A DNA stretch of 41,859 nucleotides from Candidatus Altarchaeales archaeon ex4484_2 (GTDB taxonomy: Archaea; Altiarchaeota; Altiarchaeia; IMC4; QMZM01), in contig NJEG01000032.1 in the NCBI GenBank assembly GCA_002254565.1, positions 1-41,859 of the forward strand. The letters are read 5' to 3'. The position numbers and the translations under genes are program-made. Position 1 is the first letter of the stretch; each line of letters starts with the position of its first letter. The notes below the pieces were generated by a model that was given only the letters and a program-made list of their open reading frames with translations, had not been told where the DNA came from and ran no database searches. Below are positions 23,388 to 41,859 of this stretch, one piece after another.

Positions 23388-24542
23388 ATGATATCCAAGA
23401 GAGTGAGGGATTTTCCTTTTTCAGGGATACGGGAGTTTTTCGAGCTCGTGCAGAAAGCAGAGGATGTGATCAGCCTGGGGGTTGGTGAGCCTGATTTCCC
23501 CACACCCGAGCACATCAAGGATGCCGGAATCAGGGCGATAGAAAACAACCACACATCCTATACATCAAACTATGGCCTGCCTGAGCTTAGGGAGTCTATT
23601 GCCGCTAAACTGAGGGAACAGAATAATGTCGAAGTCGACCCCGAAACAGAGGTCCTCATAACTTCCGGGGTGAGCGAGGCACTTGATTTAGCCCTGCGCG
23701 CAATAATCAACCCGGGGGATGAGGTCATCATACACGAGCCGTCTTATGTGTCCTATAGGGCTAGCATCTGGTTCTCTGGCGGCAGCCCTGTTGAGGTTTC
23801 AACCAGAGAGGATAACGGTTTCAGGGTTCAGCCGGAGGATTTAAGGGATGCGATATCAGATAAGACGAAGGCCTTGCTTATTGCATCACCCAACAATCCC
23901 ACAGGTTCTGTGTTGAGGAGAAGGGATTTGGAGGAAATCAGCGATATCGCAGTAGAAAACGATCTCCTGGTTTTATCGGATGAAATCTATGAATACATGA
24001 TATACGACAAAGAGAAACACTACTCTATCGGCTCCCTGAACGGTATGGGAGATAGGACTATCACCCTGAACGGCTATTCAAAGGCCTTCTCCTGTACCGG
24101 TTGGCGCATGGGTTATGCGGCCGGCAGGAAGGACTACATAGAGTCTATGATGAAGATTCACCAGTACACGATGCTCTGCGCTCCATCCATAGCCCAGTAC
24201 GCCCTACTTACCGCCTTCGAGCATATGGATAGTGTTGAGAGGATGGTGCGCAGCTATGACACAAGACGAAGGCTTTTGGTGGATGGGCTGAATTCCCTGC
24301 CTGATGTCTCCTGCATTAAACCGAAGGGTGCGTTTTATGCATTCCCCAACATAACGAAAACGGGATTCTCATCCAGGGAGTTCGCTGAGAAACTCTTAGC
24401 TGATGCGGGGGTTGCTGTGGTCCCCGGCGATACATTCGGCGCATCAGGGGAGGGTTATGTCAGATGCTGTTACGCCGCCTCCAGGGAGGACTTATCCGAG
24501 GCTTTGGAGAGGATGGATTCTTTCCTTACGAAACAAAAATGA
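23388..24542 (+). CDS. PLP-dependent class I aminotransferase (aspartate/aromatic type)
   Basis: The 384-residue fold-type I aminotransferase starts [18 protein letters not shown] and [19 protein letters not shown] contacts visible are [20 protein letters not shown] and the Schiff-base Lys232 in [15 protein letters not shown]. The C-terminal carboxylate-binding Arg is in GYVRCCYA. It groups by motif with archaeal AspAT-like enzymes; the exact amino donor is not readable. Its TGA overlaps the leuS ATG (ATGA). Confidence 0.93.
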
Positions 24543-26218
24543 ATGCTGAAGATAAATGGATTAAGCGTTGGAGGGATGATGACATTTTCAAGGCTGAGCC
24601 TGATCCCGAAAAGAAAAAATTTTTTTTAACCGTCGCCTACCCGTACCCCTCAGGTTCAATGCACGTGGGCCACGGCCGCACATATACCGTTCCTGACGTA
24701 ATAGCACGCTTCAAGCGGATGCAAGGATTTAATGTCCTTTTCCCGATGGCATGGCACGTCACCGGCAGCCCGGTTCTGGGTATCGCTGAACGCATCAAGA
24801 TAGGGGACCCTAAAACTCTGAAAATCTACGGCGACCTCTACAGGGTCCCTGAGAAAAAGCTTGAATCGTTCAGGGAGCCTCTGAATATAGTAAACTATTT
24901 CTCCAAAGAATACAGGGAGAATATGACCCGCCTTGGTTATTCCATCGACTGGAGCAGGCAGTTTCTGACCACAACACCCCAGTATAGCAGGTTCATTACC
25001 TGGCAGTTTCTCTCCTTAAGAGACAAGGGCTTGGTTGGGAAGGGCGAGCATCCGGTCCGCTATTGCCCGAGATGCGATAACCCCGTAGGCGACCATGACC
25101 TGATGGGGGGGGAAAGCGCTTCAATTAACGAGTTCACTGTAGTGAAGTTCAGAGTCGATGATCTAATACTTCCTGCCGCTACCCTTCGCCCTGAGACCGT
25201 TTTCGGGGTGACGAACATGTGGCTTAACCCCCAAGTCACCTACCTTAAGGTGCTGGTTGACGGTGAAGAGTGGCTTTTGAGCAGGGAGGCCTTTGAGAAG
25301 ATGAGAGACTGCGGCCGTGATGTCAAAAAACTAGGTGAGGTATCCGGTGAGGAACTTATTGGCAGGGATTGCATTAACCCGGTAAACAATGAGTCTATTC
25401 CGATCCTGGCGGCGAGTTTTGTTGACCCTGCTTATGCTACGGGTGTGGTTATGAGCGTTCCAGCGCACGCGCCCTATGATTATGTCGCCTTGCTTGATCT
25501 AAAAAGCGACATCAAGCCTAAGACAATAATCGACTTGGATGGCGTGGATGCTCCCGCCAAAGCTGTTGTCAAAGAGCTGGGCATCAGAGACCAGAAAGAT
25601 AATAAACTGGAGGAGGCAACAGAGGTGGTCTATAGGAGGGAGCACAGCAGGGGCAGAATGTCTTCCTTCATCGAGGGCTACGGTGGATTGCCTGTCGATG
25701 AAGCCAGGGAGAAGATATCATCTGACCTAGCTGTTTCCGGGGGCGGGGATCTGTTTTATGAGTTCTCTGAGTCTCCTGTGGTCTGCCGGTGCGGCTCCAA
25801 GTGTGTAATCAAGTTGATTAAGGACCAGTGGTTCCTGGAGTACAGCAGCCCTGAGTGGAAGGATAAGACCCTAACTTGTTTATCTAATCTGTCTGTTGTT
25901 CCCTCTGAGACAAGGCAGAATTTTGAGTACTTTATTGGCTGGCTTAAGAACTGGGCGTGCACCCGGCGTGTTGGTTTGGGAACCCGGTTGCCCTGGGATG
26001 ATAAGTGGATTATTGAACCGCTCAGTGATTCCACAATATATATGGCATACTACACGATAGCCCCCTACCTGGAGGATATCGATGCCTCAAAAATAAGCAG
26101 GGATTTCTTTGATTACGTTTTTCTCGGCTCAGGTGACGCGGTTGAGGTAGCTGAATCCGCTGAAATCTCTTCTGAGGTTTTGGACTTTCGGCGAAGGATT
26201 TGGTGGGCAACCACCTGA
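24539..26218 (+). CDS. leuS: Leucyl-tRNA synthetase, N-terminal part (frame lost before the KMSKS region)
   Basis: This is the archaeal/eukaryotic-type LeuRS, charging tRNA-Leu. From ATG 24539 it has the first catalytic half with the HIGH-type motif HVGH at 42-45 ([15 protein letters not shown]) and a zinc-like [12 protein letters not shown]. The CP1 editing domain follows ([46 protein letters not shown]), then the return to the core (WGIGTPLPWDD-like [20 protein letters not shown]). The frame stops at 26218 soon after EISSEVL. In homologues a segment with YWYP-D-R follows here and leads into SGKDL.NHLTF. Those ~12-15 codons are missing and the frame shifts. The second part continues in the next entry. 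Confidence 0.9.
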
Positions 26219-27243
26219 CATTCCACATGTTCCACCATACTGCCTTGTTCCCGGATGAGCTGTGGCCCCGGGGTGTTGTGGTTTTCGGCATGGGTTTGTT
26301 GGAGGGGGAGAAGATGTCGTCTTCGAAGGGCAACATCATCCTTCTGGAGGATGCTGTGAAGCGGTATGGCAGCGATGTTGTGCGTTTGTTTCTGATGGGT
26401 TGCGCTGAGCCGTGGCAGGATTTTGACTGGCGAAGTGAGCTGGTGGAGACTACGGGTAGGAAGCTGAAGCAGTATTCTGAGCTGATACGTTACTCTCTTG
26501 GAGTGGATAACAGTATAGTGGAGAGGGATATTGACAGGTGGCTTTTATCCCGTCTTCATGAGTCGGTTAGGGAGACCACTGAAGCATTAGAGTCTTTCCA
26601 GATCAGGAAGGCATTGCAGCATGCTTTCTTTGAGTTCATCAGGCACGTTAACTGGTATCTCAGAAGATGCGAGCCCCGGGCCGAAACCCTTAAAGAGGTG
26701 GCTGACACCTGGATCCGCCTTATGGCCCCCTTCACACCCTTCACCTGCGAGGAGTTGTGGGAGTCTGCGGGCAATAAAGAGCTTGTTTCCTTAAGCCCCT
26801 ATCCTGTCTCAGTCTTGGATGAGATAGATGAGGTTGTGTTGGCTAAGGAGGAGCTTGTGAAGGCTTTGATGGATGATGTGAGAAAGATTTTGGAGGTCAC
26901 AGGCTCTAAGCCAGGTAAGATACACGTCTATCTAGCTCCTGACTGGAAGCGTTTATTGTATAATGAGCTTTCATCCGGTAAATCCATGGGGGATCTGATG
27001 AAGAACCCGGAGTTGAGGGTGCATGGAACGGAGGTCGCATCAATAGTCAAGAATACAAGAGTTGATGAGATCCCGGATCTGGTTTTTTCTCTGGAGCAGG
27101 AGTTTGAGTCCTTCACTAGCGCTAAATCTTTCCTTGAGGAGGTCTTCGGTTGCTCTTTTATTTTGTACAGGAGCCCGGATTATGATCCCAAGAACAAGGC
27201 GAAGGCATCCAGGCCTATGAGGCCTGGCATCTATGTTGAGTAG
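26200..27243 (+). CDS. leuS: Leucyl-tRNA synthetase, C-terminal part
   Basis: This 347-residue frame, opening at a TTG at 26200, carries the rest of Leu[12 protein letters not shown], the KMSKS-type loop EKMSSSKGN at 37-45, [19 protein letters not shown], the anticodon-binding helical domain ([33 protein letters not shown]) and an archaeal-type C-terminal extension. In the same frame just upstream, LSAKD precedes the TTG and matches S-[GA]-K-D-L of the core. So this is the continuation of the upstream frame rather than a separately evolved gene. It overlaps the convergent thioredoxin-like gene by 13 bases. Confidence 0.88.
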
Positions 27244-28607: not shown

Positions 28608-29262
28608 TTTGCTCTATTTTTTCCTTATTCTTGTATAGCTGAGTGTAAAGGTGGAGGGTAATCAGTTCCGTGTAGGCTATTACCACACCATATAATGGTA
28701 GGATGATTATCGCAAAGTATTGCAGGAAGTTTAATACCAGCATTATAGTCGCTGCTATGATGAATTTTTTCTTTTCTTTCTTGAATGTTGCATAGGGTTC
28801 CATGATGTCAAATCCTGCTGTGAACTTATTTTTTCTGGCGTAGTGTATCATCATCAATGGCAGTGACAGTATTATGTAAACTGATCCTATCATAAACAAG
28901 ATGTACCCTATTAATCTCATGAGGGCGGTTGGAGGTTGATTTAATAACAGGGTGCTGAGGAGATATAACCCCAGTGTTGTTCCTATAATAAATGATATAG
29001 TTAGGAAGAGGGTCGTTAAACTAAATTCTATTGCTACTGCGATAGCCCCCAAGCCCTTCTTTAGCAAGTATATGGGGTCTTTTATTTCAGGTAGTTTGTT
29101 ATTTCCTTCCAGAAGTTCTTCTGCGGTTTTTATAACGTATCCGATGTAGAACGGTATGGGTAGCAGGAGGAATGCTCCTGGAAAGTCTAGCAGCCCCATA
29201 ACTACAAGCCGCTTCCAGTCCTTGAGGGGGTATTTGAAGGCTGTTTTGTAATCTAATTTCAT
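28600..29262 (-). CDS. DUF4013 membrane protein
   Basis: From ATG 29262 the protein has 220 residues, starting KLDYKTAFKYPLKDWKRLVV, the usual DUF4013 opening. Five to six membrane segments follow (LLDFPGAFLLLPIPFYIGYVI, IEFSLTTLFLTISFIIG and others). DUF4013 proteins are common in archaea and of unknown function. The start overlaps the stop of the upstream gene (ATGA at 29259-29262), so the pair is translationally coupled. Confidence 0.85.
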   Translation of the reverse strand: MKLDYKTAFKYPLKDWKRLVVMGLLDFPGAFLLLPIPFYIGYVIKTAEELLEGNNKLPEIKDPIYLLKKGLGAIAVAIEFSLTTLFLTISFIIGTTLGLYLLSTLLLNQPPTALMRLIGYILFMIGSVYIILSLPLMMIHYARKNKFTAGFDIMEPYATFKKEKKKFIIAATIMLVLNFLQYFAIIILPLYGVVIAYTELITLHLYTQLYKNKEKIEQTI

Positions 29263-30449
29263 TTCTCTTGCACTATGTACCATTGGTCTCCTTTCTTTGC
29301 TGCGAATGTTAGTTTACCTCCTATCTCAAGTGGTTCGCTGACGTATTCGTATTCGCCTTTACCTATCTCTTGTCCGCCGTATACTATGAAGTTGTTTTTA
29401 CTGCCTAGGCTGGCTACGTACGCTAGTTTTCCGTTTATTTCCCGGGGATACCACGCACCCAGGTAGTTTCGCCCTATGTCTTCTCCACCGTGTTTTATGT
29501 ATATTCGGTCTTCTTTTTGTATTGTGTAGGCTATTTTTTTGTTTACTTCGATGGGTGGCCATATCCATGTGCAGTTGATTTCTGTTATATTGTCTTTGCA
29601 GTGTATGCTGTAATTTCTTGCATTGTGTTTAATCAGAAAGACTATGTTGTTGTCGATTTCTGTTAGATAGGCTATTGTTTTTTGCCGGGTTATGATTTTG
29701 TTTTTTTCTTTTATTATCAGTTCCTCGTTGTTTTCGCTGACTATGTAGGTCAGTGTGCCGTTTATTTCTTGTGGGTTTCTTTGTGTGGAGTATTTGTTGT
29801 TTATCCTTTTTCCGTCATATACTATATAGGTTATTTCTCCTGGTCCTCCTCTGTTTTTTATGTGTGCTGTGTAGGCTGGTTTCCCGTTGATGTCTGTGAG
29901 TTCGGTTATGCCGTCGTATTTGTTTTCTGATTCTTTGTTGTCGTATACTATAAAGTATTTATCGTCTTTTACTGCTATGTAGGCTAGTTTACCTCCTATG
30001 TTGGTGGGGCAGCATACGGTGTCGTATTCGCCACCTAATTTTTTGGTTCCGTGGATGATGTATTCCTTTTCTCTCCTGTATGCTTGGTAGGCTGGTTTGC
30101 CTTCAACTTCGATTGGTGGGCTTATTTGCTGGAATTTCTCTTGGTGTTGTTTTTTCCCTTCTTGTATGTAGGCTCCGTTTCTTGCTAGTATGATGTAGGT
30201 TATTTCTTCGTTGACGTCTATTGGTTTAGTGAACCGGTCTTCGTCTATGTATTCCTGCAGGGGTATGTATTGGTTTCGGTCTCTCTGCTTGTAGATGTGT
30301 TGGCTTTGGTGTCTCTGCCAGGGAGGGTGTTCTCCTAGATATTGTAGTTTGTCTAGCTCGTAGTTTAGGTATTTCTGTTCTATTTTTTGTTCGGTCATTA
30401 GTAGCAGTATTGTGATTAGTAGGGTGGCGTGTATGTTTTTTGTATACAT
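29259..30449 (-). CDS. Secreted beta-repeat (propeller-like) protein
   Basis: The 396-residue protein has a short hydrophobic signal (NIHATLLITILLLM). From about residue 110 a ~45-residue unit repeats six or more times with the pattern P-x-E-[IV]-[NG]-G-K-[LP]-A-Y-x-A ... [FY]-I-[VK]-[YH]-x-G. Examples are INGKLAYVASLGSKNNFIVY and IGGKLTFAAKKGDQWYIV. The regular strand pattern suggests a beta-propeller or solenoid exposed outside the cell, similar in spirit to WG repeats. The first ~100 residues are Gln/Tyr-rich. It is coupled to the DUF4013 membrane protein. Sense-strand C exceeds G, opposite to the usual coding bias. Confidence 0.75.
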   Translation of the reverse strand: MYTKNIHATLLITILLLMTEQKIEQKYLNYELDKLQYLGEHPPWQRHQSQHIYKQRDRNQYIPLQEYIDEDRFTKPIDVNEEITYIILARNGAYIQEGKKQHQEKFQQISPPIEVEGKPAYQAYRREKEYIIHGTKKLGGEYDTVCCPTNIGGKLAYIAVKDDKYFIVYDNKESENKYDGITELTDINGKPAYTAHIKNRGGPGEITYIVYDGKRINNKYSTQRNPQEINGTLTYIVSENNEELIIKEKNKIITRQKTIAYLTEIDNNIVFLIKHNARNYSIHCKDNITEINCTWIWPPIEVNKKIAYTIQKEDRIYIKHGGEDIGRNYLGAWYPREINGKLAYVASLGSKNNFIVYGGQEIGKGEYEYVSEPLEIGGKLTFAAKKGDQWYIVQEK

Positions 30450-30794: not shown

Positions 30795-31919
30795 TCAGCA
30801 TTCAACGGAGTTTATGACGCGATTAAAGATTGGCTCATATCGGCTGAAATCATCTGGTTTAGCGCTTATTCCAACAGCAATGATTTTGTTAGGTGAACAT
30901 ACGAAAACAGCATCTTTTTGTTTAAGATTTTTGTCTGTACTTGTATACTCAAAAATCCAAGTTTCTTTATTGTTTATTTCTGTTTTTCTCTTCTTTATTT
31001 CTCCATCGAGCGTGAGTATATGCTCTATTGAGTATTCATAGATTTCATCTATTTCAAAGTCTATAGGTTCTTCAAATAATTCAACAGTACTCAATATCTT
31101 AACTTCAGTAAAATCTAAACTCATATCTTTCAGTGAATGATTCTCAAATTCCGCGAATATGATGCTGAACTCAGAATGCTCTAGTTTCAGAAGATGCATA
31201 TACCAATCAACAGGACACTCGAATGAATAAGAATATTCGTTATTGACATATCTTGTCCATTTAGTTTTATTTTGATATAATTCTTTGAATGCGAATGCTC
31301 TGTTATTCCAAGCACGCATAAAATCAGGTTTTATTTCTAATGCTCTATTGTAATAATAAATTGATTCATTATAACGATGGTCTGATTGGAGAACAACACC
31401 CTTGTTATGCCATATACTCGGATTGCTGGAATTAACCTCCAACAGTGAATCAAATATTTCAAGAGCTTCCTCGTATCTGCCGAGTTCATTTAATGTTAGT
31501 CCTTTATTCACCAAAGCGTCTGAATAACATGAATCGATTTCAAGAACCTTGTTATACATTAATAATGCCTCATCATGTCTTTTTAGTTCAGTTAAAGTAC
31601 GTCCTTTATTATACCAAGCATCCCTATAACTGCTGTTTATCTCCAAAGCTTTTTCAAATGCCACTAAAGCTTCTTTCTGCCTATTCAGATCACATAAAGC
31701 AAGCCCCTTATTGTTCCATAGCACAGTACTCTCAGAATTTATTTTAATAGCTTTATTGAAGGCTTTTAATGCTTCAGAATATCTCTCTTGCTCAACTAAT
31801 TCAAGTCCTTTCTCGTACCAATATTCGCTAGTTTTGTTAGTTTTATAACTCCCGAACTCAACACAACAACTAACTGTTATAAGTACCAAAACCAATCCCA
31901 AGATGATGTTTTTTAGCAT
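30795..31919 (-). CDS. TPR lipoprotein with C-terminal PsbP-like domain
   Basis: The 374-residue protein has a lipoprotein signal (LGLVLVLITVSC, Cys at ~18). About six tetratricopeptide repeats follow (YWYEKGLELVEQERYSEAL; LWNNKGLALCDLNRQKEAL; AWYNKGRTLTELKRHDEAL; ALVNKGLTLNELGRYEEAL and others). From ~215 a PsbP/DcrB-like domain begins (YSYSFECPVDWYMHLLKLE) and ends NRVINSVEC at the C-terminus. Two relatives lie at 39388-40635 and 40676-41859. It starts 6 bases after the gene at 31926. It is probably a surface scaffold bound through its lipid. Confidence 0.85.
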   Translation of the reverse strand: MLKNIILGLVLVLITVSCCVEFGSYKTNKTSEYWYEKGLELVEQERYSEALKAFNKAIKINSESTVLWNNKGLALCDLNRQKEALVAFEKALEINSSYRDAWYNKGRTLTELKRHDEALLMYNKVLEIDSCYSDALVNKGLTLNELGRYEEALEIFDSLLEVNSSNPSIWHNKGVVLQSDHRYNESIYYYNRALEIKPDFMRAWNNRAFAFKELYQNKTKWTRYVNNEYSYSFECPVDWYMHLLKLEHSEFSIIFAEFENHSLKDMSLDFTEVKILSTVELFEEPIDFEIDEIYEYSIEHILTLDGEIKKRKTEINNKETWIFEYTSTDKNLKQKDAVFVCSPNKIIAVGISAKPDDFSRYEPIFNRVINSVEC

Positions 31920-31925
31920 TTTAGT

Positions 31926-33122
31926 TCAATCAAGCCATCGGGTGACGCTGTTCCAGATATTATTGATTTTATTTTCTATAGACCTTATTAAATCAAAACC
32001 TTTATTGCTGTAATAGAGATAACTATGTAAATCCCTTATTAATCCTGGCGTGGTCTCATTGCGTGTTTCACAGACCTTAACATCAGCTATTGGGTCACCG
32101 TTTAATTGCCCCCAGACATCACCTATATCCGCGTCAGTGACAGTCACAGTATCTGAGACTCTATCCCCCTCAGTTTCCCAAGCATATGCTCTCGTCTTAA
32201 TATCCCTCTCGATAAACACCTTATCAACTAAACACAGACCACCTGCTCCTGTAATCCCGTACATTGGGGCTAGTTCAGGATGTCTTGTTAAGAGATCATA
32301 TGACTCCATCATGCATTCCGTAGGAGCATAGGCTAAAGGATATGTGTTAAGATAACCCCCATCCTCCCCAGAATGACCTTCTACCAAAGGTATACTTATT
32401 TGAGTATTTAGACCTCTCTTATCCTTAAAAAGGAAATCAAGATTAAACATGGCTTTTAATACACCTTCAGCTGATATTTTGAAGTCATAATCTGTAACAT
32501 CAGCATTTACCATCACACCTCCAAAACCATCCAATGCTCCCACAGTCTTTCTTTCGAATTTTAGTTTTGATACTGAGCCGATAGAACCACCATAATCCCC
32601 CCAATTTCTCAATTCACCTGCTATAAAAGAACCTATACCTGCACTGTTGTTAACTGTTTCATTTATGGTTATTCTACCTGAAAGGGGTTGATTAAGGATA
32701 TTATGCTTAAAGTTTATTGTTCCTTTTGGATCTGTTATGAAATCCCAGATTCCCCTCGCACTATCATATAAATTATTTGCAGCATTTAATGCAGCAGTTA
32801 GGGTGTCCATTCCACTCATTCCCTGATATGGATTATATAACCCTGTTGTTGTAGTTGTGGATGTGCCACCAACCAAAGAAGTTATTGTTTCTGAGCTGAC
32901 ATCCCCTTTTTCTATTCCGCTGTAGGGGTTGTGGGGGCTGTTGATGCCGTAGAGTGTGTTGAAGACTTCCTGGGGTGTCATCTGTGTTGGGTTGGTTGTG
33001 AACATGTCTTTGACGTCGTTGTAGGAGTAGATCATGTAGTAGCCGTCTGGTTTTTGAACAAACAAGCGGCCACCGTCCAGGTACACAGGCGGTTTGCTGC
33101 TGGCTGAGGTCTCCAAAAACAC
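31926..33122 (-). CDS. Large modular protein B: constant N-terminal module, unique C-terminal part
   Basis: The 398-residue protein starts at a GTG. Residues ~17-75 form a module (KPDGYYMIYSYNDVKDMF, then NPTQMTPQEVFNTLYGINSP and HNPYSGIEKGDV) almost identical to residues 1-58 of the protein at 38077-39333. A short Thr-rich linker (GGTSTTTTTGLYNPY) follows. The remaining ~310 residues are unrelated to the other copy: amphipathic helices (LTAALNAANNLYDSARGIWD), then a beta-rich region (LSGRITINETVNNSAGIGS, KFERKTVGALDGFGGVMVN) and a domain with four scattered Cys. There is no obvious membrane segment or signal peptide. It fits a constant-head/variable-tail effector. Function is unknown. Confidence 0.75.
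   Translation of the reverse strand: MFLETSASSKPPVYLDGGRLFVQKPDGYYMIYSYNDVKDMFTTNPTQMTPQEVFNTLYGINSPHNPYSGIEKGDVSSETITSLVGGTSTTTTTGLYNPYQGMSGMDTLTAALNAANNLYDSARGIWDFITDPKGTINFKHNILNQPLSGRITINETVNNSAGIGSFIAGELRNWGDYGGSIGSVSKLKFERKTVGALDGFGGVMVNADVTDYDFKISAEGVLKAMFNLDFLFKDKRGLNTQISIPLVEGHSGEDGGYLNTYPLAYAPTECMMESYDLLTRHPELAPMYGITGAGGLCLVDKVFIERDIKTRAYAWETEGDRVSDTVTVTDADIGDVWGQLNGDPIADVKVCETRNETTPGLIRDLHSYLYYSNKGFDLIRSIENKINNIWNSVTRWLD
32901..33070 (-). repeat. Duplicated 170-bp block, copy B
   Basis: This block aligns without gaps to 39151-39320. I count 13 mismatches by eye, about 92% identity, and similarity stops on both sides. It encodes the shared N-terminal module of the two large modular proteins. 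Confidence 0.9.
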
Positions 33123-33150: not shown

Positions 33151-33315
33151 TTATTGGGTGTAGTGCCAGATTAGTGCTACTGTGGTTATGCCAAAGGCTG
33201 CTGTTAACCCAGCCTGCCTCATTTTTTTCCGTTTAAGGTAGCTTACTGTCATCCAGAAGGAACCTACTGCTATGACCTTCGCCGCCACCCACCAAGGATC
33301 ACCCACGCCGCCCAT
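33151..33315 (-). CDS. 54-residue membrane protein in the accessory operon
   Basis: A short frame from ATG 33315 to TAA 33151 reads MGGVGDPWWVAAKVIAVGSF and continues WMTVSYLKRKKMRQAG, then a second hydrophobic stretch LTAAFGITTVALIWHY. Two membrane hairpin segments are separated by a basic loop (KRKKMR), a holin-like layout. It starts 9 bases after the stop of the preceding gene and ends 28 bases before the start of modular protein B. In the other cassette the gene after the corresponding partner is also a small membrane protein (37012-37368). Confidence 0.6.
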   Translation of the reverse strand: MGGVGDPWWVAAKVIAVGSFWMTVSYLKRKKMRQAGLTAAFGITTVALIWHYTQ

Positions 33316-33324
33316 TTTCTTTGT

Positions 33325-34185
33325 TTATTGGTCCTTTATTACACCGTCTTTTTTCATCATATTGTAGAGTTCCATGAAATTAATTCCGTTGTAGGAGCCA
33401 AAGCTCTTTATTTGCTCCTCAACCTCCTCCCTAGTCATCGTTCTGGGTAATCCTATTTTTGTTAAATCAGTGTGCAACAGCTTCAGGTAGGTTCTCCAGG
33501 CAACCAACACATCCTCTGGCAGAATTTCATCTCTACCAGCTTCCGCAGCATGACATGCTGTAATAAAATCAACACCACGTTCAATACGCCAGATATACCC
33601 TAAGTTATTGTATTCTTTACCTAATTTACCTCCACCATAGGCGAGTTGTGTTTTGTTACTCCTCTCGTTCATGAATCTATCTCTTATTTTTTTACCCTCC
33701 TTAGACCATCTTACTCGATTAAGTAGCTGATATAATCCAACGGTTAGAGGTCTGAAATCTTGGGTTACATCAAAATCTTCAAAGGAGACAAGAATATTCT
33801 CATACACCGTGAAAATCCTTTTTAAATCATCCACATTGTAAAAATGAGGGTCCTTTTGGGTCTGGTATACTCCATTTATGAGCAATTTCAGTAAAAGTGG
33901 GTGCTCTTTATGTATTTTCTTTCTTATTGTTCTTGATTTAAATTTATCGTTTTTCAATATCGCTTCATCTAAAAGATTTCTGGGGAGGGTGTTAAGCCAT
34001 TTTCTAAAATCGTCTTTTAGGTCCGGTCCATCATCGTTTTTATCTTTTTTTATTAGCATTCCTTTAATGATTTTTTCGTATTGTTTTGATTCCCCGAATT
34101 TACCTATCTCTTGGAGTATCTCCTCCTCACCCATCTCCTCGTATTTCATAGTTAATCCTATTGTGTTTTTGGTTATATATTGCAT
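33325..34185 (-). CDS. Partner protein B with conserved C-terminal LPEDV module
   Basis: The 286-residue soluble protein is charged and mostly helical. Residues ~215-285 (AGRDEILPEDVLVAWRTYLK and LLHTDLTKIGLP ... SFGSYNGINFMELYNMM) match the C-terminal part of the protein at 37365-38063, while the N-terminal two thirds do not. The R-D-x-I-x-P-E-D-V-x-x-A pattern recalls the lid helices of MCM/MoxR-type AAA+ proteins, but no Walker motif is present. An ATG at 34149 (MKYEEMGEEEIL) is an alternative start. It follows the 111-residue gene by 7 bases. Confidence 0.72.
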   Translation of the reverse strand: MQYITKNTIGLTMKYEEMGEEEILQEIGKFGESKQYEKIIKGMLIKKDKNDDGPDLKDDFRKWLNTLPRNLLDEAILKNDKFKSRTIRKKIHKEHPLLLKLLINGVYQTQKDPHFYNVDDLKRIFTVYENILVSFEDFDVTQDFRPLTVGLYQLLNRVRWSKEGKKIRDRFMNERSNKTQLAYGGGKLGKEYNNLGYIWRIERGVDFITACHAAEAGRDEILPEDVLVAWRTYLKLLHTDLTKIGLPRTMTREEVEEQIKSFGSYNGINFMELYNMMKKDGVIKDQ

Positions 34186-34192
34186 TTTTCAT

Positions 34193-34528
34193 TTACCCTC
34201 GCAGGTTATTCCACCAATCTTGTGCGTAATCAACTCCCTGATTCCAGAGATTTTCACCCCAACCAATAGTATCCTGAACAAATTTAACAGCAGGATTGCC
34301 GCTGTTTGCATTATCCAAAATTATATGCCGTTCTATTGACCCAAGAACATGATCCAATTCAGGACCAAGAACCTTCTCAAATTTCTTCCCATAATTTCTA
34401 CTCACTATATCAACTCCATGCATTATCGCATTAATAGGTCTCCCCAAACTACCCACCTTAACAGGTATTTTCTCCAAACCACGCCAGGATTTACATTTGT
34501 GTTTGATTTCTTTACATTTTAGAATCAA
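34193..34528 (-). CDS. Orphan C-terminal module related to the end of modular protein A
   Basis: This 111-residue frame opens at a TTG (34528); the true start is uncertain because the frame is open further upstream. Its last ~75 residues align by eye with the last ~80 of the protein at 38077-39333. Both have a V-L-G/V-G-T-L stretch, then A-[VL]-K-F-x3-T-I-x5-W-x-N and an aromatic amphipathic end. It lacks the constant N-terminal module. Like the full-length protein, it is followed directly by an LPEDV partner gene. It therefore looks like a detached tail cassette. Confidence 0.55.
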   Translation of the reverse strand: MILKCKEIKHKCKSWRGLEKIPVKVGSLGRPINAIMHGVDIVSRNYGKKFEKVLGPELDHVLGSIERHIILDNANSGNPAVKFVQDTIGWGENLWNQGVDYAQDWWNNLRG

Positions 34529-34554
34529 AGGGAGAGAGATTATATCTTGAACAG

Positions 34555-35757
34555 TTATTTGAAATCTTGGGTTAGATAGTAGTATTCTTCTTTAGGATCA
34601 TAGACTACGCCGACCCCTATGAACTCATATTCTCCGTTGAGTATGTTTGCTTGATGTCCAAGACTGTTCATCCAGGAGTTAATCATTGCTTCTGCTACGT
34701 CTTGGTTGGAGCTTATTTGTCCATATCCTTCTACGTTTCCTTTTGGCATGAGGCCTATGTTTTCACCTATACCTATTTCATAGACATAGCCTTTTCTTGT
34801 AATTGTTTCATAGCCTCTTTCTTCTGCCCGTTCTGTAGGATCTTCGCCTTCTATATTGAAGTGGCTAAAATGTCCGGTTTTTGCCATCTCTAGGCTGTGT
34901 TGTCTTGCGATATCTGCTAGGAGCGGATCCCAAATTAGTTCTTTTTGTCCGTAGTTTCTTCTTATCTTGTTGGTTTCTCGGAAGACTAACAATTCAATAT
35001 TGTATGTATCCCTATTCATGTTTTCTGGTTCTCCTGCTGCCCACTCTGATACTTTCTCACCGATTTCGCTGATATTTATTATAAGTGGATTGAATTTTTC
35101 GTATTCAATCGATGTGTTATACCCTGCTATTTGTGGTATGTATGTTTTTTGGTTATTATAGATGTATACTGTCAAGACTACTAATATAATTAATAGAATT
35201 ATTCTTTGGTTTGTTGTGATTTGCTTATTGTACAAGTATCCTATTGATTTCAGGGTCCAGTAGATTCTTTTGATGAATAAGAATGTTATTATGAAGAGTA
35301 GTAGTGATCCTAATTTTATTAGTGGTATGTCTATTATAGTGTTTATGAGTTCTATGTTTTGGTAGATCATCAATGCAATAAGTCCGTATATTGTTAGAAA
35401 TAAGATATTTTGGATTAGGTATTTTGGCGATCTGCGTATCCAGTTTCGTATGTTTCTAGGTATGAGCTTGTATTTGATGAAGTTTGTTATTCTTCTCAGA
35501 ATATTTTTTTTCTTAGTAATCACATTTATTTGTTTGTCTTCCTCTTTTTTTCTGATGCCATTTATTTTTCCCCCCATATAATCCCAAGAACGTTTATGTT
35601 TTCCGGATTTTTCGTGTCTTTGTTTTTTGTATTCTTTTAGTCCTCTGCAGTTATGATTTTCGGGTAGACGATGTTCTGGGCAATAATATTTTCCACAAAA
35701 GCTACATTTGAAAGGTAATTTTTTAATTGGTATTTTACAATAATAGCAATTAGTCAT
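34555..35757 (-). CDS. AN1 zinc finger - membrane - CAP/SCP domain protein
   Basis: The 400-residue protein begins with an AN1-type zinc finger at residues 4-37 (CYYCKIPIKKLPFKCSFC, CPEHRLPENHNC). A basic linker and about four membrane segments (residues ~112-215) follow. From ~250 a CAP/SCP-family domain is present: ELLVFRETNKIRRNYGQKEL, HSLEMAKTGHFSHFN, ERGYE, IGENIG, WMNSLGHQANILNG and FIGVGVVY. CAP domains are usually extracellular, so the zinc finger would be cytosolic and the CAP domain outside. The start overlaps the upstream stop by 8 bases. Confidence 0.88.
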   Translation of the reverse strand: MTNCYYCKIPIKKLPFKCSFCGKYYCPEHRLPENHNCRGLKEYKKQRHEKSGKHKRSWDYMGGKINGIRKKEEDKQINVITKKKNILRRITNFIKYKLIPRNIRNWIRRSPKYLIQNILFLTIYGLIALMIYQNIELINTIIDIPLIKLGSLLLFIITFLFIKRIYWTLKSIGYLYNKQITTNQRIILLIILVVLTVYIYNNQKTYIPQIAGYNTSIEYEKFNPLIINISEIGEKVSEWAAGEPENMNRDTYNIELLVFRETNKIRRNYGQKELIWDPLLADIARQHSLEMAKTGHFSHFNIEGEDPTERAEERGYETITRKGYVYEIGIGENIGLMPKGNVEGYGQISSNQDVAEAMINSWMNSLGHQANILNGEYEFIGVGVVYDPKEEYYYLTQDFK

Positions 35758-36880
35758 TTTCGTAAATTTCGACAGCAGCGGTTAGAACAATTCCTTCAGA
35801 CGCGCATTCAATAAATCTTATTCCAAAATGATCAACTACTGCTCCCTCTTCTGTAACCGTCACTTGTCTTTGCACTATTATCTCATCTGGTTTTTCGATT
35901 TCAACTACAACACCCACACATTCATAATCCCCAGAAAATATTGAGTGATTTATTTTGAAGTTATAACCATCATATGTCGTCCAATCATCGCTATTAATAT
36001 CTATCTTTCTCTTTATTATCGATGTTATTGTAGTAACTGTTGTTGTTTCTATTGTAGTTTTAGCTATGTCTTTTTGTCTTAACCATATCTCAGCATATTC
36101 TACTAATCCCTCCCAATATGCTTTAATAAATCCAATCTCAGTATTATCATCAATGAGAGTCATGTAATTTTTTACACATTTACTTTCGGTTTCTAAGCGA
36201 TTTGGTTCTTTCACTTGTAATGCAATAGCTATTGGTTCATATTCTCCTGAATAGATGATATGCTCTATTTTAAACATATATCCCTGGTATTCTTTACTGT
36301 AACTTCCAGAGTTTATTTCAATTATTTCTGCATCATTTGGAGGTATATCTCCTTCATAGGGTCTTAGATATAAAACATCCCATTCACAATCTTCTCTTAT
36401 ATATTCATCCTCTATTTTACCACAAATTAATATGTCACTTTTATTAAAAGCAATGCTTGCATGACATAAGTCTTTCATAAATTTATCAGTTATGTTTATA
36501 CATTCAGGAATCTCCTCTGCATAAGTTATTCTTGGGAGAGTAATTGTTGTAAGTGTGATGGTAGGCGTGCTTATATAGAGTTTAGGGAAGGATGTTGTAG
36601 TAGTAACACTCGGGATATACGAAAATAGCATACTAGGTAAGATAAAAATGCTGAATGTAAACATCAGTAATAACATGAGGACGGAAATAACTTTCAAATT
36701 AATTTTCTTTTCCTTAAAAATCTTTTCAAACAACCATAATGATGTTAGAGCACCAATAACTGTAACTCCCGCATCCACTAATGCAGGAAGTAATCCTGAA
36801 CTAGCATATGTTCTTGAGAAGATTAATGTTCCTATGATAATTCCTATTAAAAAATTCCGCTTCATCTCTTTACTGACCAT
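35750..36880 (-). CDS. Membrane protein with two tandem copies of an extracellular domain
   Basis: The 376-residue protein has two to three N-terminal membrane segments (FLIGIIIGTLIFSRTYA; LVDAGVTVIGALTSLWLF; VISVLMLLLMFTFSIFILP). A Thr-rich linker and two related domains follow. The first contains GYMFKIEHIIYSGEYEPIAI, the second GYNFKINHSIFSGDYECVGV; each then has a ~50-residue beta-rich tail. A Cys-containing spacer (ECINITDKFMKDLCHAS) precedes the first. I do not recognise the family. It overlaps the CAP gene start, so the two are co-translated. An ATG at 36865 (MKRNFL) is an alternative start. Confidence 0.72.
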   Translation of the reverse strand: MVSKEMKRNFLIGIIIGTLIFSRTYASSGLLPALVDAGVTVIGALTSLWLFEKIFKEKKINLKVISVLMLLLMFTFSIFILPSMLFSYIPSVTTTTSFPKLYISTPTITLTTITLPRITYAEEIPECINITDKFMKDLCHASIAFNKSDILICGKIEDEYIREDCEWDVLYLRPYEGDIPPNDAEIIEINSGSYSKEYQGYMFKIEHIIYSGEYEPIAIALQVKEPNRLETESKCVKNYMTLIDDNTEIGFIKAYWEGLVEYAEIWLRQKDIAKTTIETTTVTTITSIIKRKIDINSDDWTTYDGYNFKINHSIFSGDYECVGVVVEIEKPDEIIVQRQVTVTEEGAVVDHFGIRFIECASEGIVLTAAVEIYEND

Positions 36881-37011
36881 TGCAACTCAGAGGAATAATT
36901 AGATTCCTGCCCATAAAACGCATTAGAGGATCATTGAAATCCCTTGCTTTTATTCTATTTAATTTAATATAAAACTCGGTGGTTGATATGAGTCCGCTTA
37001 GAGACTTATTT

Positions 37012-37368
37012 TTAAATGAGAGGGGATATTATTAATCCTACTATGCTGATTATTATTCCTGCTACGAGTGTTAATCCTAGTGCTGAGACAAACATTTGTG
37101 AGAATATGTTGAATGATTCCCTCCAACCCACTCCATAAGAGTATTTGATTAGTAGTATGTATGATGGGAAGCCCAGTAGTCGTGCTCCGGAACTCGATGC
37201 TAGATAAAGCAATACCGTGAAGGCTGTGCCTGATAAAACAACAAATAGGGCAGTATAGATGTCTTGCCTCCTGTGGTTTCTTTCGATGGATATCTGGTTT
37301 AACACTACTGTAACAGCACCTAACATTAATGTTAGTAGTATCCCCCAACCAACGTATTCGAGTATCAT
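37012..37368 (-). CDS. Small polytopic membrane protein downstream of partner A
   Basis: The 118-residue protein has three to four membrane segments (VGWGILLTLMLGAVTVVLNQ; IYTALFVVLSGTAFTVLLYL; SALGLTLVAGIIISIVGLII) and a charged loop SIERNHRRQD. Its ATG overlaps the stop of the LPEDV partner gene (ATGA), indicating tight coupling. A 54-residue membrane protein occupies the same position after the other partner gene. No family is recognised. Confidence 0.72.
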   Translation of the reverse strand: MILEYVGWGILLTLMLGAVTVVLNQISIERNHRRQDIYTALFVVLSGTAFTVLLYLASSSGARLLGFPSYILLIKYSYGVGWRESFNIFSQMFVSALGLTLVAGIIISIVGLIISPLI

Positions 37369-38063
37369 CTTGCTGGTTTTGTTACTTGGGTGTTGGCTTC
37401 AGATTCTTCTTCTAGGTTATATTCTTCCAGGGTGGCTTGGTATAATCGATCCGCTATCTCACGATAAGATTTGCCCTTGTATGAACCGAGAGAGTCTAGT
37501 TCCTGGTTTATTTCCTCATCTGTTTTATCCGGTGGTAAGGGAATCTTCGACAGGTCAGTGTTAATCAACTTCAAGATAGTTCTATATGCCCGAAAAACAT
37601 CCTCCGGCAGGATAACATCCCGGCCCCCAAGAACAGCAGAAACAGCAGAAAAAAGCCTGAAAGAGGATAAAGTAAGCGCGCCGTTAATACTGGTGAATCC
37701 AACATATCTGACATCGATTTGATCTAATTTTTTACTTATTTCTTTGTTTATTTTTTTTGCTTTTTTATTCATACTTACCTTTTTGTAAAGCATGATGATT
37801 AATCCATTGGTTAATTCAACATTACGGTAAACTACATAATCTCGTGATAAATAATTTTTAAAAAGTCCCTTTTTTAGTAGCGTTTCTTCAATCAACCTTC
37901 TGGGATTTCTGCAGTTGTACTTAGCTCTCTTAATAGTCATCTTATCGACATTATCCACATCATCCATCCTAGCTATCTCTGGAATCTTCTTGTAGACCTC
38001 TGAGTCCTTTAATGCATCAATCTCATCCAGTATCTCCTTTAATTCCCCATCCATTTTTTCCAT
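37365..38063 (-). CDS. Partner protein A with conserved C-terminal LPEDV module
   Basis: From ATG 38063 (MEKMDGELKEILDEIDAL) the protein has 232 residues. GTG 38090 and ATG 38054 are alternatives; a GAGG motif 9 bases before 38054 favours that one slightly. The N-terminus is charged and helical. The C-terminal module (GRDVILPEDVFRAYRTILKL, INTDLSKIPLPPDKTDEE, SLGSYKGKSYREI) matches that of the protein at 33325-34185, while the N-terminal parts differ. It directly follows modular protein A and precedes a small membrane protein. The constant-C/variable-N layout next to a variable-tail protein suggests a cognate partner or immunity role (inference). Confidence 0.72.
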   Translation of the reverse strand: MEKMDGELKEILDEIDALKDSEVYKKIPEIARMDDVDNVDKMTIKRAKYNCRNPRRLIEETLLKKGLFKNYLSRDYVVYRNVELTNGLIIMLYKKVSMNKKAKKINKEISKKLDQIDVRYVGFTSINGALTLSSFRLFSAVSAVLGGRDVILPEDVFRAYRTILKLINTDLSKIPLPPDKTDEEINQELDSLGSYKGKSYREIADRLYQATLEEYNLEEESEANTQVTKPAR

Positions 38064-38076
38064 CCTCGTATCATAT

Positions 38077-39333
38077 TTAAAACAAACCACCTAAAAAATT
38101 GTATGCTATATTCTTCAAATCCATGCCCAGTTTGGTAATTTTTTGTATACTTCCATTATACCAATTAGTCGCTGTGTTGATTGTGCCCTCTGCAAACTTT
38201 AAGGCGTCGGTGTTGCCATCGATATATGACCTTAGAGTGCCCACCTCCAACAGGGTTCCAACTGAGGGTATAATGGCAGACATCTTCTTCTTCAAACTAG
38301 CTGGAGCTGCCTCAAAAACAGACTTCACACCATACAATGCCCCCGACGTGAGATCACCGACCTGGAAGTTACAGTAAGACGAGAAGCTATTAATCGAAAA
38401 CCTACCCGACCTAGTTTCCTGGTTAAATATTTTATTGAATGGTCGTTTCTCACCTAACTTAATAAGATAACCCTCCACAGTAGAGGACTCAAATATCTCA
38501 CCTACCTTGCTCCTAAACCACCTAGTATCCTTCAAACCACCAACATTCTTAAGTAAATCATAGGTTTTGTTTCCACCTTCCATCAACATCTTAGTCAATG
38601 GTCTTGCGTTTGTAAGTGCCGTATTCACTATACTATTATTCCTCAACAATCGATATGTATCGCTTACTTTATCTATTTTACCCGCCCAGCTAGCTAACCT
38701 GCCAATAGCTCCTATGCCATCAGCAGCATAAAGGGCATCAATACCTAAGTCAGCGAAGGAAGTCCAAACCCGGTCGTCTTCGTCCACATGAACGCCGAGC
38801 AATAAATCCATGGCAGCATTACCTAACTCATTACCGCCCACGAACCTTGCTAGATCATTCAACACCGGTACATGAGTAAAGAAATCCCTGGGAGCTGTTA
38901 ACTCATTCCAGACTGCGCCGCCAACATCACCAACCAAGAAATTAGCTATCGGCTGCATAAAATCGTTGACAGGTTTCAGTGTATCCGCTACAGGTTGTAT
39001 TACTAATATTGTGTTCACAGCATTTCTTGCAGCTGTCTGATCAGGCATCACATTACCGTGAATATCTAACACGTTACCCTGTGCGTCAAAAACAAGAGCT
39101 CCATTAGCATCAGCAGCAGTTATTAACTCATTAACAGCCCCACCACCAACATCTCCTTTTTGTATGCTGCTGTAGGGGTTGTGGGGGCTGTTGATGCCGT
39201 ATAGGGTGTTGAAGACTTTTTGGGGTGTCATCTGTGTTGGGTTGGTTGTGAACATGTCTTTGACGTCGTTGTAGGTGTAGATCATGTAGTAGCCGTCTGG
39301 CTTCAAAACAAACAAGCGGCTGTTGTTAATCAT
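38077..39333 (-). CDS. Large modular protein A: constant N-terminal module, unique C-terminal part
   Basis: The 418-residue protein starts MINNSRLFVLKPDGYYMIY, and residues 1-58 nearly match the N-terminal module of the protein at 31926-33122. Afterwards the two are unrelated. The middle contains hydrophobic/Gly-rich helices (LGNAAMDLLLGVHVDEDD, FADLGIDALYAADGIGAIGR) reminiscent of the linker regions before toxin tips in bacterial polymorphic toxins. A basic region (TRWFRSKVGEIFESST) and a C-terminal domain related to the orphan 111-residue gene at 34193-34528 follow. There is no signal peptide or sure membrane helix. No enzymatic motif is recognised. Confidence 0.75.
   Translation of the reverse strand: MINNSRLFVLKPDGYYMIYTYNDVKDMFTTNPTQMTPQKVFNTLYGINSPHNPYSSIQKGDVGGGAVNELITAADANGALVFDAQGNVLDIHGNVMPDQTAARNAVNTILVIQPVADTLKPVNDFMQPIANFLVGDVGGAVWNELTAPRDFFTHVPVLNDLARFVGGNELGNAAMDLLLGVHVDEDDRVWTSFADLGIDALYAADGIGAIGRLASWAGKIDKVSDTYRLLRNNSIVNTALTNARPLTKMLMEGGNKTYDLLKNVGGLKDTRWFRSKVGEIFESSTVEGYLIKLGEKRPFNKIFNQETRSGRFSINSFSSYCNFQVGDLTSGALYGVKSVFEAAPASLKKKMSAIIPSVGTLLEVGTLRSYIDGNTDALKFAEGTINTATNWYNGSIQKITKLGMDLKNIAYNFLGGLF
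39151..39320 (-). repeat. Duplicated 170-bp block, copy A
   Basis: This block is the counterpart of 32901-33070 (about 92% identical, no gaps, by eye). It is G/T-rich on the plus strand, while the rest of the gene is A/C-rich, so its composition differs from its surroundings. Confidence 0.9.
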
Positions 39334-39387: not shown

Positions 39388-40635
39388 TCAGCATTCAACC
39401 GAGTTGATTACGTAGTGTATTGTTGGCTTGTATTTTTGGAATTTCTCGTGATTTTCCATGTTACACATGAGCATTAATAGCTTATCTGAACTGCAATGAA
39501 CCAAGGCAATAATCCCATACCTCTCCCTATTATTTTCCAAAATATGGGCATATTCCTCAATCAACACATCATTTCCAGCAATAATTGTTTTATTCACCTC
39601 ATTAAATATTAATTCAATACCCTCCTCTTTTGTATAGTCTCTATGGGCGTCAACATACATTTGGGCGTTTTCATGAAGATCCTGCGGCTCTTCTTTCATG
39701 ACCGATAAAGAAACAATAATAGCCGTCCCATCTTCATCCCCTCCATGGAAGCTTGTTGAGAAAAAAGAATCTTTTTTTATAAACTCTTTGATTTCATCAG
39801 TTTCTTCGATCATCCACCAACTAACGGGAATGTTGATTGAATAATTTTCATAGAACCTATATTCAAGTGAGGTATATTCAGTGAGTTTATGAACTACTCC
39901 TAATCTTTTATTCCAAGCACAAGCATTTTTAGGGTTAACCTCCAGCGCCTTATTGAACACATCAAGTGCATTACTAATATCGCCACTATGGACTAATGTA
40001 ATGCCTTTATTGCACCAAGCACTATCAAAATAATAGTCTAACTCAAGAGCTGTATCAAATGCTGAGATAGACTCATTATATCTGCCCATACCCCCCAAAG
40101 CAACACCTTTATAAGCCCATATGGACTTATCTTTTGGTCTAATCTTTGAAGCCTTTTCATACACCTCAAATGCTTCATCATATCTATCTAAATCAAGAAG
40201 CAATTTTCCTTTATCATATAGTGCATCGAAATAATCAGGGTCTATCTCTAAGGCAGTATTGTACGCCTCTAAAGCCCCCTCTATTTTTCCAATTTCAGCT
40301 AATTGTTCACCCTTGCTAAACCAAGCTATTTTGTATTTAGGGTTTAGTTCAATTGCCTTATCAAATGCAGATAATGAATTATTATATCTTCCCATCTTAG
40401 AGAAGATAACTCCTTTGTTGTTCCATGCAGTGTATATTGTGGGATCAATTTCCAAGACCTTATCAAAGGCTTCAATAGCCTCATCGTATCTTTCTTGTTC
40501 AAATAACTCTAATCATTTATTGAACCAGTATTCTTTGGAATCAGCATTATCCAGAGGATTAACGCAACCAGAAAATACCAACAACAATAAAACCAAAAAA
40601 CCAGCCGCAAAACCAAACCTAGACAACAGTCTCAT
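39388..40635 (-). pseudogene. TPR lipoprotein with PsbP-like domain, interrupted by an in-frame TGA
   Basis: Read from ATG 40635, the frame gives a lipoprotein signal (GFLVLLLLVFSGC) and KEYWFNK. It meets TGA at 40513-40515 and continues in the same frame with LELFEQERYDEAIEAFDKVL and the rest of a TPR protein. In the paralogue the same place reads YWYEKGLELVEQERYSEAL, so TGA replaces a conserved Gly codon (GGA to TGA). The 355-residue remainder could restart internally but would lack export. About six TPRs are followed by a PsbP-like domain (YRFYENYSINIPVSWWMIEE) ending YVINSVEC. Other genes here use TGA as a normal stop, so recoding is unlikely. Confidence 0.75.
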
Positions 40636-40675: not shown

Positions 40676-41859
40676 TCACGTGGTTGATGTCTGGTTTTCC
40701 ATCAACTCTATTATGAATTCTCGGTTGGCTGCAGCATCTTTTGCTGAGGGATTCAACTCTAATACTTTGTTGAAGCACTCCAATGACCTATTGAGATAAC
40801 CAAGATAATATAATGTCAGGCCTTTGTTATGCCAGGCGCTGTCGAAATTAGGGTCGATTTCAATCGCTTCATCTGCTAACGTAATTGCCTCGTCATATCT
40901 ACCTAAACCATTTAATGCATCTATTTTGTTCAATAGTATATCCTCTCGATCATATCGGGAGGAATCCTCTAAAACATTATCATATGCATACAAAGCCTCA
41001 TTGTATCTCCCCAAAAAATGTAGATTAACTGCTTTATTCATCCAGGCATCACTGTAACTCGAATTTTTTTCTAGAACCTTATCTAATAAACCTATTGCTT
41101 CGGAGTATCTGCCTAAGTCTGTTAAAACATCTGCTTTGTTGTATAATACGCGTGTATCATCCGGCTCCAACGTTAATGCAGTATCATAAACCTCCAAAGC
41201 CTCTTCATACTTATGAAGACCTCTTAACGCTATACCCTTATTATTCAATGCTGTTACCGACTCTGGCTCCAACTCCAATAACTCATCATATTTCTCAAGA
41301 GCCTCATCATATCTCCTCTCTTGAAGCAACCACCTACCCTCTAAATTCAATGACTCCAACAGAGGAACCTCACACCTCAAGGAATCAATCATACGAGAAA
41401 AAACAGGCTCATAATCATCATAACTCTCCAGAATACTGGAACAATCAATCGAGAATAAATTATTGTTACAGTTTAAATAAACTATTTTGTGTTTTGTTTT
41501 TATAACATCATACTCTAAGATTAAATCAGCAATATGCCTTTTATTGTTATTTGTCTCTTCAGCGGTTATTTTCAACACCCGAACTTTAGCATTTGAAGAA
41601 TTCTTGATGTTCGTGAAAAATTGATTAACTGATTTGTTTATTAATTCGTCACTCAAAGTGAAATTTTTTGAAAGATAATAATTGGTGTATAACAAGACTG
41701 ACACTATAACACGGTCATCTTTTTTTGGTCCTTTAAAAAATAGGACAGTAAGATTAGATAAATCCCATTCCGACTTTTTAAATTTATTGTCATATGCACT
41801 TAAATTTTTCCATTCAATCTGCCATGTTGAGGGGTATTCTAGGCTAAACCCGTATTCTT
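40676..41859 (-). CDS. PsbP-like domain followed by TPR repeats (5' end outside window)
   Basis: The frame is open to the window edge. Upstream of a GTG at 41704 the translation still reads as protein (EYGFSLEYPSTWQIEW, SEWDLSNLTVLFFKGPKKDD), so the real start lies beyond the window. The PsbP-like domain comes first here and ends around MIDSLRCEVP. About six TPRs follow (LQERRYDEALEKYDELLELE; LRGLHKYEEALEVYDTALTL; LTDLGRYSEAIGLLDKVLEK). The domain order is thus reversed relative to the two related proteins, unless further TPRs precede it. It ends 40 bases before the next TPR gene. Confidence 0.82.
   Translation of the reverse strand, partial: EYGFSLEYPSTWQIEWKNLSAYDNKFKKSEWDLSNLTVLFFKGPKKDDRVIVSVLLYTNYYLSKNFTLSDELINKSVNQFFTNIKNSSNAKVRVLKITAEETNNNKRHIADLILEYDVIKTKHKIVYLNCNNNLFSIDCSSILESYDDYEPVFSRMIDSLRCEVPLLESLNLEGRWLLQERRYDEALEKYDELLELEPESVTALNNKGIALRGLHKYEEALEVYDTALTLEPDDTRVLYNKADVLTDLGRYSEAIGLLDKVLEKNSSYSDAWMNKAVNLHFLGRYNEALYAYDNVLEDSSRYDREDILLNKIDALNGLGRYDEAITLADEAIEIDPNFDSAWHNKGLTLYYLGYLNRSLECFNKVLELNPSAKDAAANREFIIELMENQTSTT

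What the first reader, a model, noticed from the sequence alone, without database searches (positions are those of the whole stretch)
33151..38500. Repeated triad: tail domain, LPEDV partner, small membrane protein
The order tail-domain gene, partner gene, small TM gene occurs twice: 38077-39333 / 37365-38063 / 37012-37368 and 34193-34528 / 33325-34185 / 33151-33315. In the second triad the tail is a separate 111-residue gene without the constant head, like the orphan tail cassettes of toxin loci. The tail alignment (A-x-K-F-x3-T-I-x5-W-x-N) was made by eye.
Basis: partly seen in the sequence, partly recalled or inferred. Interest (0 to 1): 0.68.

Follow-up and report, generated by a model that had tools for sequence, protein, structure and literature searches.

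The report
Archaeal toxin-like surface protein, immunity-like partners
This stretch of an archaeal genome carries two copies of a gene set that looks like a cell-surface toxin with changeable tails next to its protective partner genes, and the same set turns up in a distant group of methane-producing archaea, which suggests a little-known way archaea fight or recognise each other.

Summary
The window is from an Altiarchaeota genome. The two partner genes (B1, B2) are clear homologues (E=1e-19). Tail-carrying gene, B and small membrane gene occur in the same order in a second Altiarchaeota genus, and in many methanogen (Methanobacteriales-type) genomes, where the tail gene is a 1,000-1,700-residue secreted beta-helix surface protein. 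A shared domain just before the tail links both phyla (profile P=3e-7). In 24 of 30 genome-wide hits of that domain a B gene follows within 1.9 kb on the same strand; the other six lie at contig ends. B genes form tandem arrays, and short orphan tails sit directly before B, as the 111-residue gene does here. The layout matches a polymorphic-toxin system: variable C-terminal tail, adjacent immunity (B plus membrane module), orphan cassettes. B has no Pfam, NCBIfam, PHROGs, PADLOC or PDB match. Not supported: homology of the 111-residue protein to protein A's tail (no HMM match; local alignment only p=0.01), and homology of the two small membrane proteins. Toxicity and immunity are inferred from layout, not shown. 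Verdict: new variant of a known kind.

The parts
38077..39333 (-). Protein A (A1, 418 aa): head + pre-tail domain + variable helical tail; no signal peptide found
39149..39320 (-). Constant head block in A1, 172 bp, 92% DNA identity to 32899-33070
38662..38928 (-). Pre-tail domain of A1, shared with A' of a second Altiarchaeota genus and with methanogen surface proteins
   Evidence: the E=6e-19 uses a profile that includes A1 itself, searches are the independent tests
37365..38063 (-). Partner B1 (232 aa from ATG), predicted immunity protein
37012..37368 (-). Small membrane protein C1 (118 aa, 3 TM by hydropathy), overlaps the end of B1 by 4 nt
   Evidence: homologue C' in G011, E=4e-7
34193..34528 (-). 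T2, 111-aa separate gene, predicted orphan tail cassette; stop lies 7 nt before B2
   Evidence: position, codon usage, matching orphan tails before B in methanogens; sequence homology to A1 tail not established
33325..34185 (-). Partner B2 (286 aa), predicted immunity protein
33151..33315 (-). C2, 54-aa small protein with two weakly hydrophobic stretches; positional counterpart of C1
   Evidence: homology not shown
31926..33122 (-). H2 (398 aa): same head followed by a different, unrelated C-terminal region; no B gene follows it
32899..33070 (-). Constant head block in H2, 172 bp

Best explanation
The region is a locus of an archaeal polymorphic-toxin-like system. A surface-exported protein carries a variable helical tail at its C-terminus after a conserved pre-tail domain. 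Gene B directly downstream, together with a small membrane protein (separate gene C, or fused to the end of B in some methanogens), protects the producer from that tail, most likely at the inner face of its own membrane. In this genome A1 and H2 are cassette-type genes without a signal peptide. They share a recombining head and differ in the tail. T2-B2-C2 is a second, orphan tail with its own immunity pair. SHOWN: B homology; the A-B-C order in two Altiarchaeota genera; the shared pre-tail domain; the pre-tail-to-B linkage; B arrays; orphan small genes before B; C fused to or separate from B in methanogens; the head shared at DNA level with divergence after it. INFERRED: that the tail is toxic and acts on membranes; that B and C are immunity; that T2 is a tail; that the head serves cassette exchange.
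For: B1/B2 E=1e-19. In G011, another genus, A'-B'-C' lie in the same order with overlapping ORFs: A' 930 aa with an N-terminal hydrophobic signal segment, A1/A' E=2e-11, B' E=3e-20, C' E=4e-7. B profile finds 28 of 151 genomes of one methanogen order (methanogen markers TfrA, SepRS, CofG in the loci). The gene before B is a secreted beta-helix surface protein with a variable, mostly Lys-rich helical tail. Pre-tail domain: profile-profile P=2.9e-7, score 44 against at most 18 in 100 column shuffles. All 17 methanogen genomes with the pre-tail domain also have B (p=2e-15), and 24 of 30 hits have B 0.6-1.9 kb downstream on the same strand, the other 6 at contig ends. 66 B genes: 19 directly after a pre-tail protein, 21 after another B. 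The separate 2-TM module is homologous to the TM end of fused B proteins, all seven fused ends tested and one held-out separate module scoring above all shuffles. Orphan short tails before B: L030 81 aa and 52 aa, L074 66 aa, L077 74 aa. Head block 92% identical DNA, then divergence. B and tail similarities covary, r=0.77, Mantel p<0.001. Layout criteria from Zhang 2012 (PMC3482391).
Against: No tail matches a known toxin domain. Tails show no mutual sequence homology. C1 and C' do not match the methanogen membrane module. The B-tail covariation falls to r=0.30 once pre-tail similarity is controlled, so co-inheritance explains much of it. The pre-tail profile was built from proteins found next to B, which favours the linkage count. 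Altiarchaeota tails are only weakly basic (net +9 and +13, against +24 to +94 in methanogens). Only 2 of 29 Altiarchaeota genomes carry the system. Structure models were too poor to use (pLDDT 46 and 33).
Confidence: 0.66

Rival explanations
1. The system is a surface adhesin with a dedicated membrane partner, not a toxin: the basic helical tail anchors or exports the adhesin, and B plus the membrane module form its cytoplasmic docking or secretion partner.
For: Upstream proteins are adhesin-like beta-helix proteins; B and the TM module act as one unit (fused or adjacent); no known toxin domain.
Against: Several B genes per surface gene in tandem, B arrays without a surface gene, stand-alone tails without export signal, hypervariable tails, and a head shared at DNA level with different C-termini fit toxin-immunity better.
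Confidence: 0.2
2. The first triad is a real system but the second (T2-B2-C2) is a decaying remnant: T2 is a leftover 3' end or unrelated ORF, C2 an unrelated small gene.
For: T2 has no significant match to the A1 tail, a TTG or late ATG start, and C2 has no match to C1. Methanogen arrays contain many B copies with stop codons.
Against: B2 is intact and groups with B1 and B' (clan support 0.99); T2 and C2 have coding-like frames; stand-alone tails before intact B genes recur in other genomes. Stand-alone cassettes are a normal part of polymorphic-toxin loci.
Confidence: 0.3
3. A two-gene toxin-antitoxin pair or a proviral module.
For: Small gene directly before a larger one; AT-rich island.
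Against: The tail sits on large secreted surface proteins; no B relatives in phage, plasmid or viral-contig collections; no PHROGs or PADLOC match for B.
Confidence: 0.04

Closest known systems
Polymorphic toxin systems (Zhang et al. 2012, PMC3482391); predicted archaeal versions (Makarova et al. 2019, mBio e00715-19, not held in the library)
   Same: Long surface protein, pre-tail domain, variable C-terminus, adjacent candidate immunity gene, stand-alone cassettes, tandem immunity arrays.
   Different: No recognised toxin or immunity domain; B, the pre-tail domain and the membrane module have no Pfam or NCBIfam match; tails are helical and mostly Lys-rich, not nuclease-like. Whether Makarova 2019 listed these loci could not be checked.
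Contact-dependent inhibition (CdiA-CdiI) with orphan cdiA-CT/cdiI modules (from general knowledge)
   Same: Orphan tail plus immunity pairs downstream of the main gene; constant region then divergence.
   Different: No two-partner secretion (CdiB) gene seen; archaeal; extra membrane partner.
VARTIG modules of Thermococcales (PMC8416519)
   Same: Archaeal large surface protein with hypervariable C-terminus followed by small membrane-protein genes.
   Different: Ig domains and other families; no shared domain was seen here, though no direct sequence comparison was made.

Membership tests
Polymorphic toxin system | N-terminal secretion or surface-anchoring part | tested here: inconclusive
   Met in A' (N-terminal hydrophobic segment 7-25) and in methanogen proteins; not found in A1 or H2, which look like displaced cassettes.
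Polymorphic toxin system | Central adhesion or presentation region | tested here: met
   Beta-helix, NosD and Chlam_PMP repeats in methanogen proteins; LamG domains upstream of two head copies on contig C37 of the same genome. Not present in A1 or H2 themselves.
Polymorphic toxin system | Conserved pre-toxin-type domain before the C-terminus | tested here: met
Polymorphic toxin system | C-terminal region varies while the rest is kept | tested here: met
   172-bp head 92% identical between A1 and H2, then no similarity; tails without mutual homology after a shared pre-tail domain.
Polymorphic toxin system | C-terminal region has toxin activity | not testable with these tools
   No known toxin domain; needs an assay.
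Polymorphic toxin system | Immunity gene immediately downstream | tested here: inconclusive
   Position met in 24 of 24 resolvable cases; neutralising function untested.
Polymorphic toxin system | Stand-alone toxin cassettes and tandem immunity genes | tested here: met
   B arrays and short orphan tails before B. For T2 itself only the position fits; sequence homology is inconclusive.

The most novel reading that the evidence does not exclude
A so far unnamed, archaea-specific class of contact-dependent weapon in which the effector is a membrane-active helical tail on giant surface proteins and immunity is a two-part unit (helical cytoplasmic B plus a small membrane module, split or fused), shared between Altiarchaeota and methanogens with beta-helix adhesins.
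Probability: 0.4. Interest if true: 0.8.

Novelty: new variant of a known kind. Interest (0 to 1): 0.6.

Why it matters
Archaeal polymorphic toxins are predicted but were described in 2021 as not experimentally characterised (PMC8416519). This adds a protein family (B), a pre-tail domain and a membrane module that mark such loci in two distant archaeal phyla. It suggests a concrete function for some of the many 'adhesin-like proteins' of methanogens, and it is directly testable by co-expression in a laboratory bacterium.

Tried and rejected
T2 to A1-tail homology: BLASTP, HMM, Smith-Waterman with shuffles, not significant. C1 to C2 and C1/C' to the methanogen membrane module: no match. B hits in G387, G322 and G086 are housekeeping proteins or unrelated. 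Viral, phage and plasmid origin: no hits. AlphaFold models of B2 (mean pLDDT 46, all helical) and A1 (33) were too weak for a fold search, so none was run. A' tape-measure PHROG hit (E=4.5e-6 over residues 248-853) set aside as probable coiled-coil similarity. DUF234, Glutaredoxin2_C and similar Pfam hits are all below curated cut-offs. The first genome-contig scan with B1 alone found nothing. Makarova 2019 could not be read.

Full report
SETTING. The window is contig C15 of a 1.4-Mb archaeal genome. The first 28 kb are housekeeping genes at about 48% GC. From about 28.6 kb to the end lies an AT-rich island (32-42% GC) with the genes in question, a CAP-domain protein and three TPR proteins.

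THE OBSERVATION. All ORFs exist as stated. A1 38077-39333, B1 37365-38063, C1 37012-37368; T2 34193-34528, B2 33325-34185, C2 33151-33315. B1 and B2 are homologues. C1 and C2 are not similar. The 'constant head' is confirmed: A1 and H2 (31926-33122) share a 172-bp block of 92% DNA identity (39149-39320 and 32899-33070) and then diverge. Two more head copies end a LamG-domain protein on contig C37, which breaks off about 100 bp after the second copy.

A SECOND ALTIARCHAEOTA GENUS. G011 carries A'-B'-C' in the same order with overlapping ORFs: A' 930 aa, B' 267 aa, C' 120 aa. Each is homologous to A1, B1 and C1 respectively. A' has an N-terminal hydrophobic signal segment. No other of the 29 Altiarchaeota genomes has B or the pre-tail domain.

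METHANOGENS. The B profile finds tandem B relatives in G304 (four by the ORFs). A seven-sequence profile finds B in 28 of 151 genomes of that order, up to 14 matches per genome, many with internal stops. In a sample of 394 archaeal genomes the family occurs only in these two groups. The Altiarchaeota B proteins form one clan in the tree (support 0.99).

WHAT LIES BEFORE B. In methanogens the gene before B is often a 1,000-1,700-residue protein with a signal peptide-like start and beta-helix, NosD or Chlam_PMP repeats, then a pre-tail domain, then a variable tail with net charge +24 to +94 that often ends in an aromatic or basic helix. A different set of surface proteins with hydrophobic helical tails precedes B in G521-G523. 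The pre-tail domain of 13 methanogen proteins matches A1 and A' (HMM: both rank above 1000 shuffles; profile-profile P=2.9e-7). A genome-wide search with the combined profile gives 30 places. In 24, B lies 0.57-1.84 kb downstream on the same strand. The other six are at contig ends. All 17 methanogen genomes with the domain are B-positive. The profile was built from B neighbours, which biases this count, but the search itself was genome-wide.

WHAT LIES AFTER B. A census of 66 B genes has 19 directly after a pre-tail protein and 21 after another B. Eight have two or more C-terminal TM segments and 14 are followed by a separate small TM gene. L120, L119, L083 and L079 show the full order surface protein - B - small membrane protein. 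The separate module is homologous to the fused one. C1 and C' hold the same position but do not match that module.

ORPHAN TAILS. Short genes of 52-81 residues, several Lys-rich and ending in the same style, lie 1-14 nt before B in L030, L074 and L077. T2 lies 7 nt before B2. This is the main support for reading T2 as an orphan tail, since tails are too variable for homology tests: even A1 and A' tails reach only p=0.025.

MECHANISM. Inferred: the surface protein presents the tail to neighbours; the tail attacks the membrane; B, held at the inner membrane by C, neutralises it in the producer. The membrane module and the amphipathic look of the tails favour a membrane target. Nothing here tests activity.

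COMPARISON. The layout meets most criteria of Zhang 2012: surface export, presentation repeats, pre-toxin domain, variable C-terminus, adjacent partner gene, stand-alone cassettes, tandem partner genes. Toxin activity and immunity are untested. B has no match in Pfam, NCBIfam, PHROGs, PADLOC or PDB above thresholds. Makarova 2021 states that archaeal systems are predicted, not characterised. The 2019 survey could not be read, so prior listing of these loci is possible.

Noticed in passing
window 34555-35757 (-): AN1 zinc finger fused through hydrophobic segments to a CAP (SCP/PR-1) domain, placed directly before T2.
   Followed up: no
window 30795-31919, 39388-40455, 40676-41704 (-): Three TPR proteins flank the cassettes; at least one has a weak PsbP-like C-terminus. 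MOG1/PspB-like genes are listed near some bacterial toxin systems in PMC3482391; possible immunity or accessory genes for H2.
   Followed up: no
window 24464-26218 and 26200-27243 (+): Leucyl-tRNA synthetase (by eye) appears split over two overlapping ORFs in different frames: natural split or a frameshift in the assembly.
   Followed up: no
L007 (own contig C37) 713-1915 and 1800-5117: LamG protein with two C-terminal head copies; its frame appears shifted near 1.9 kb and the contig ends just after the second head.
   Followed up: partly
L070, L071, L124: B genes follow a second architecture of surface protein, with hydrophobic rather than Lys-rich tails and no detectable pre-tail domain.
   Followed up: partly
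window 29259-30449 (-): Protein with WG-like repeats (LAYIAxKxDxxYIVYxG), no Pfam match.
   Followed up: no
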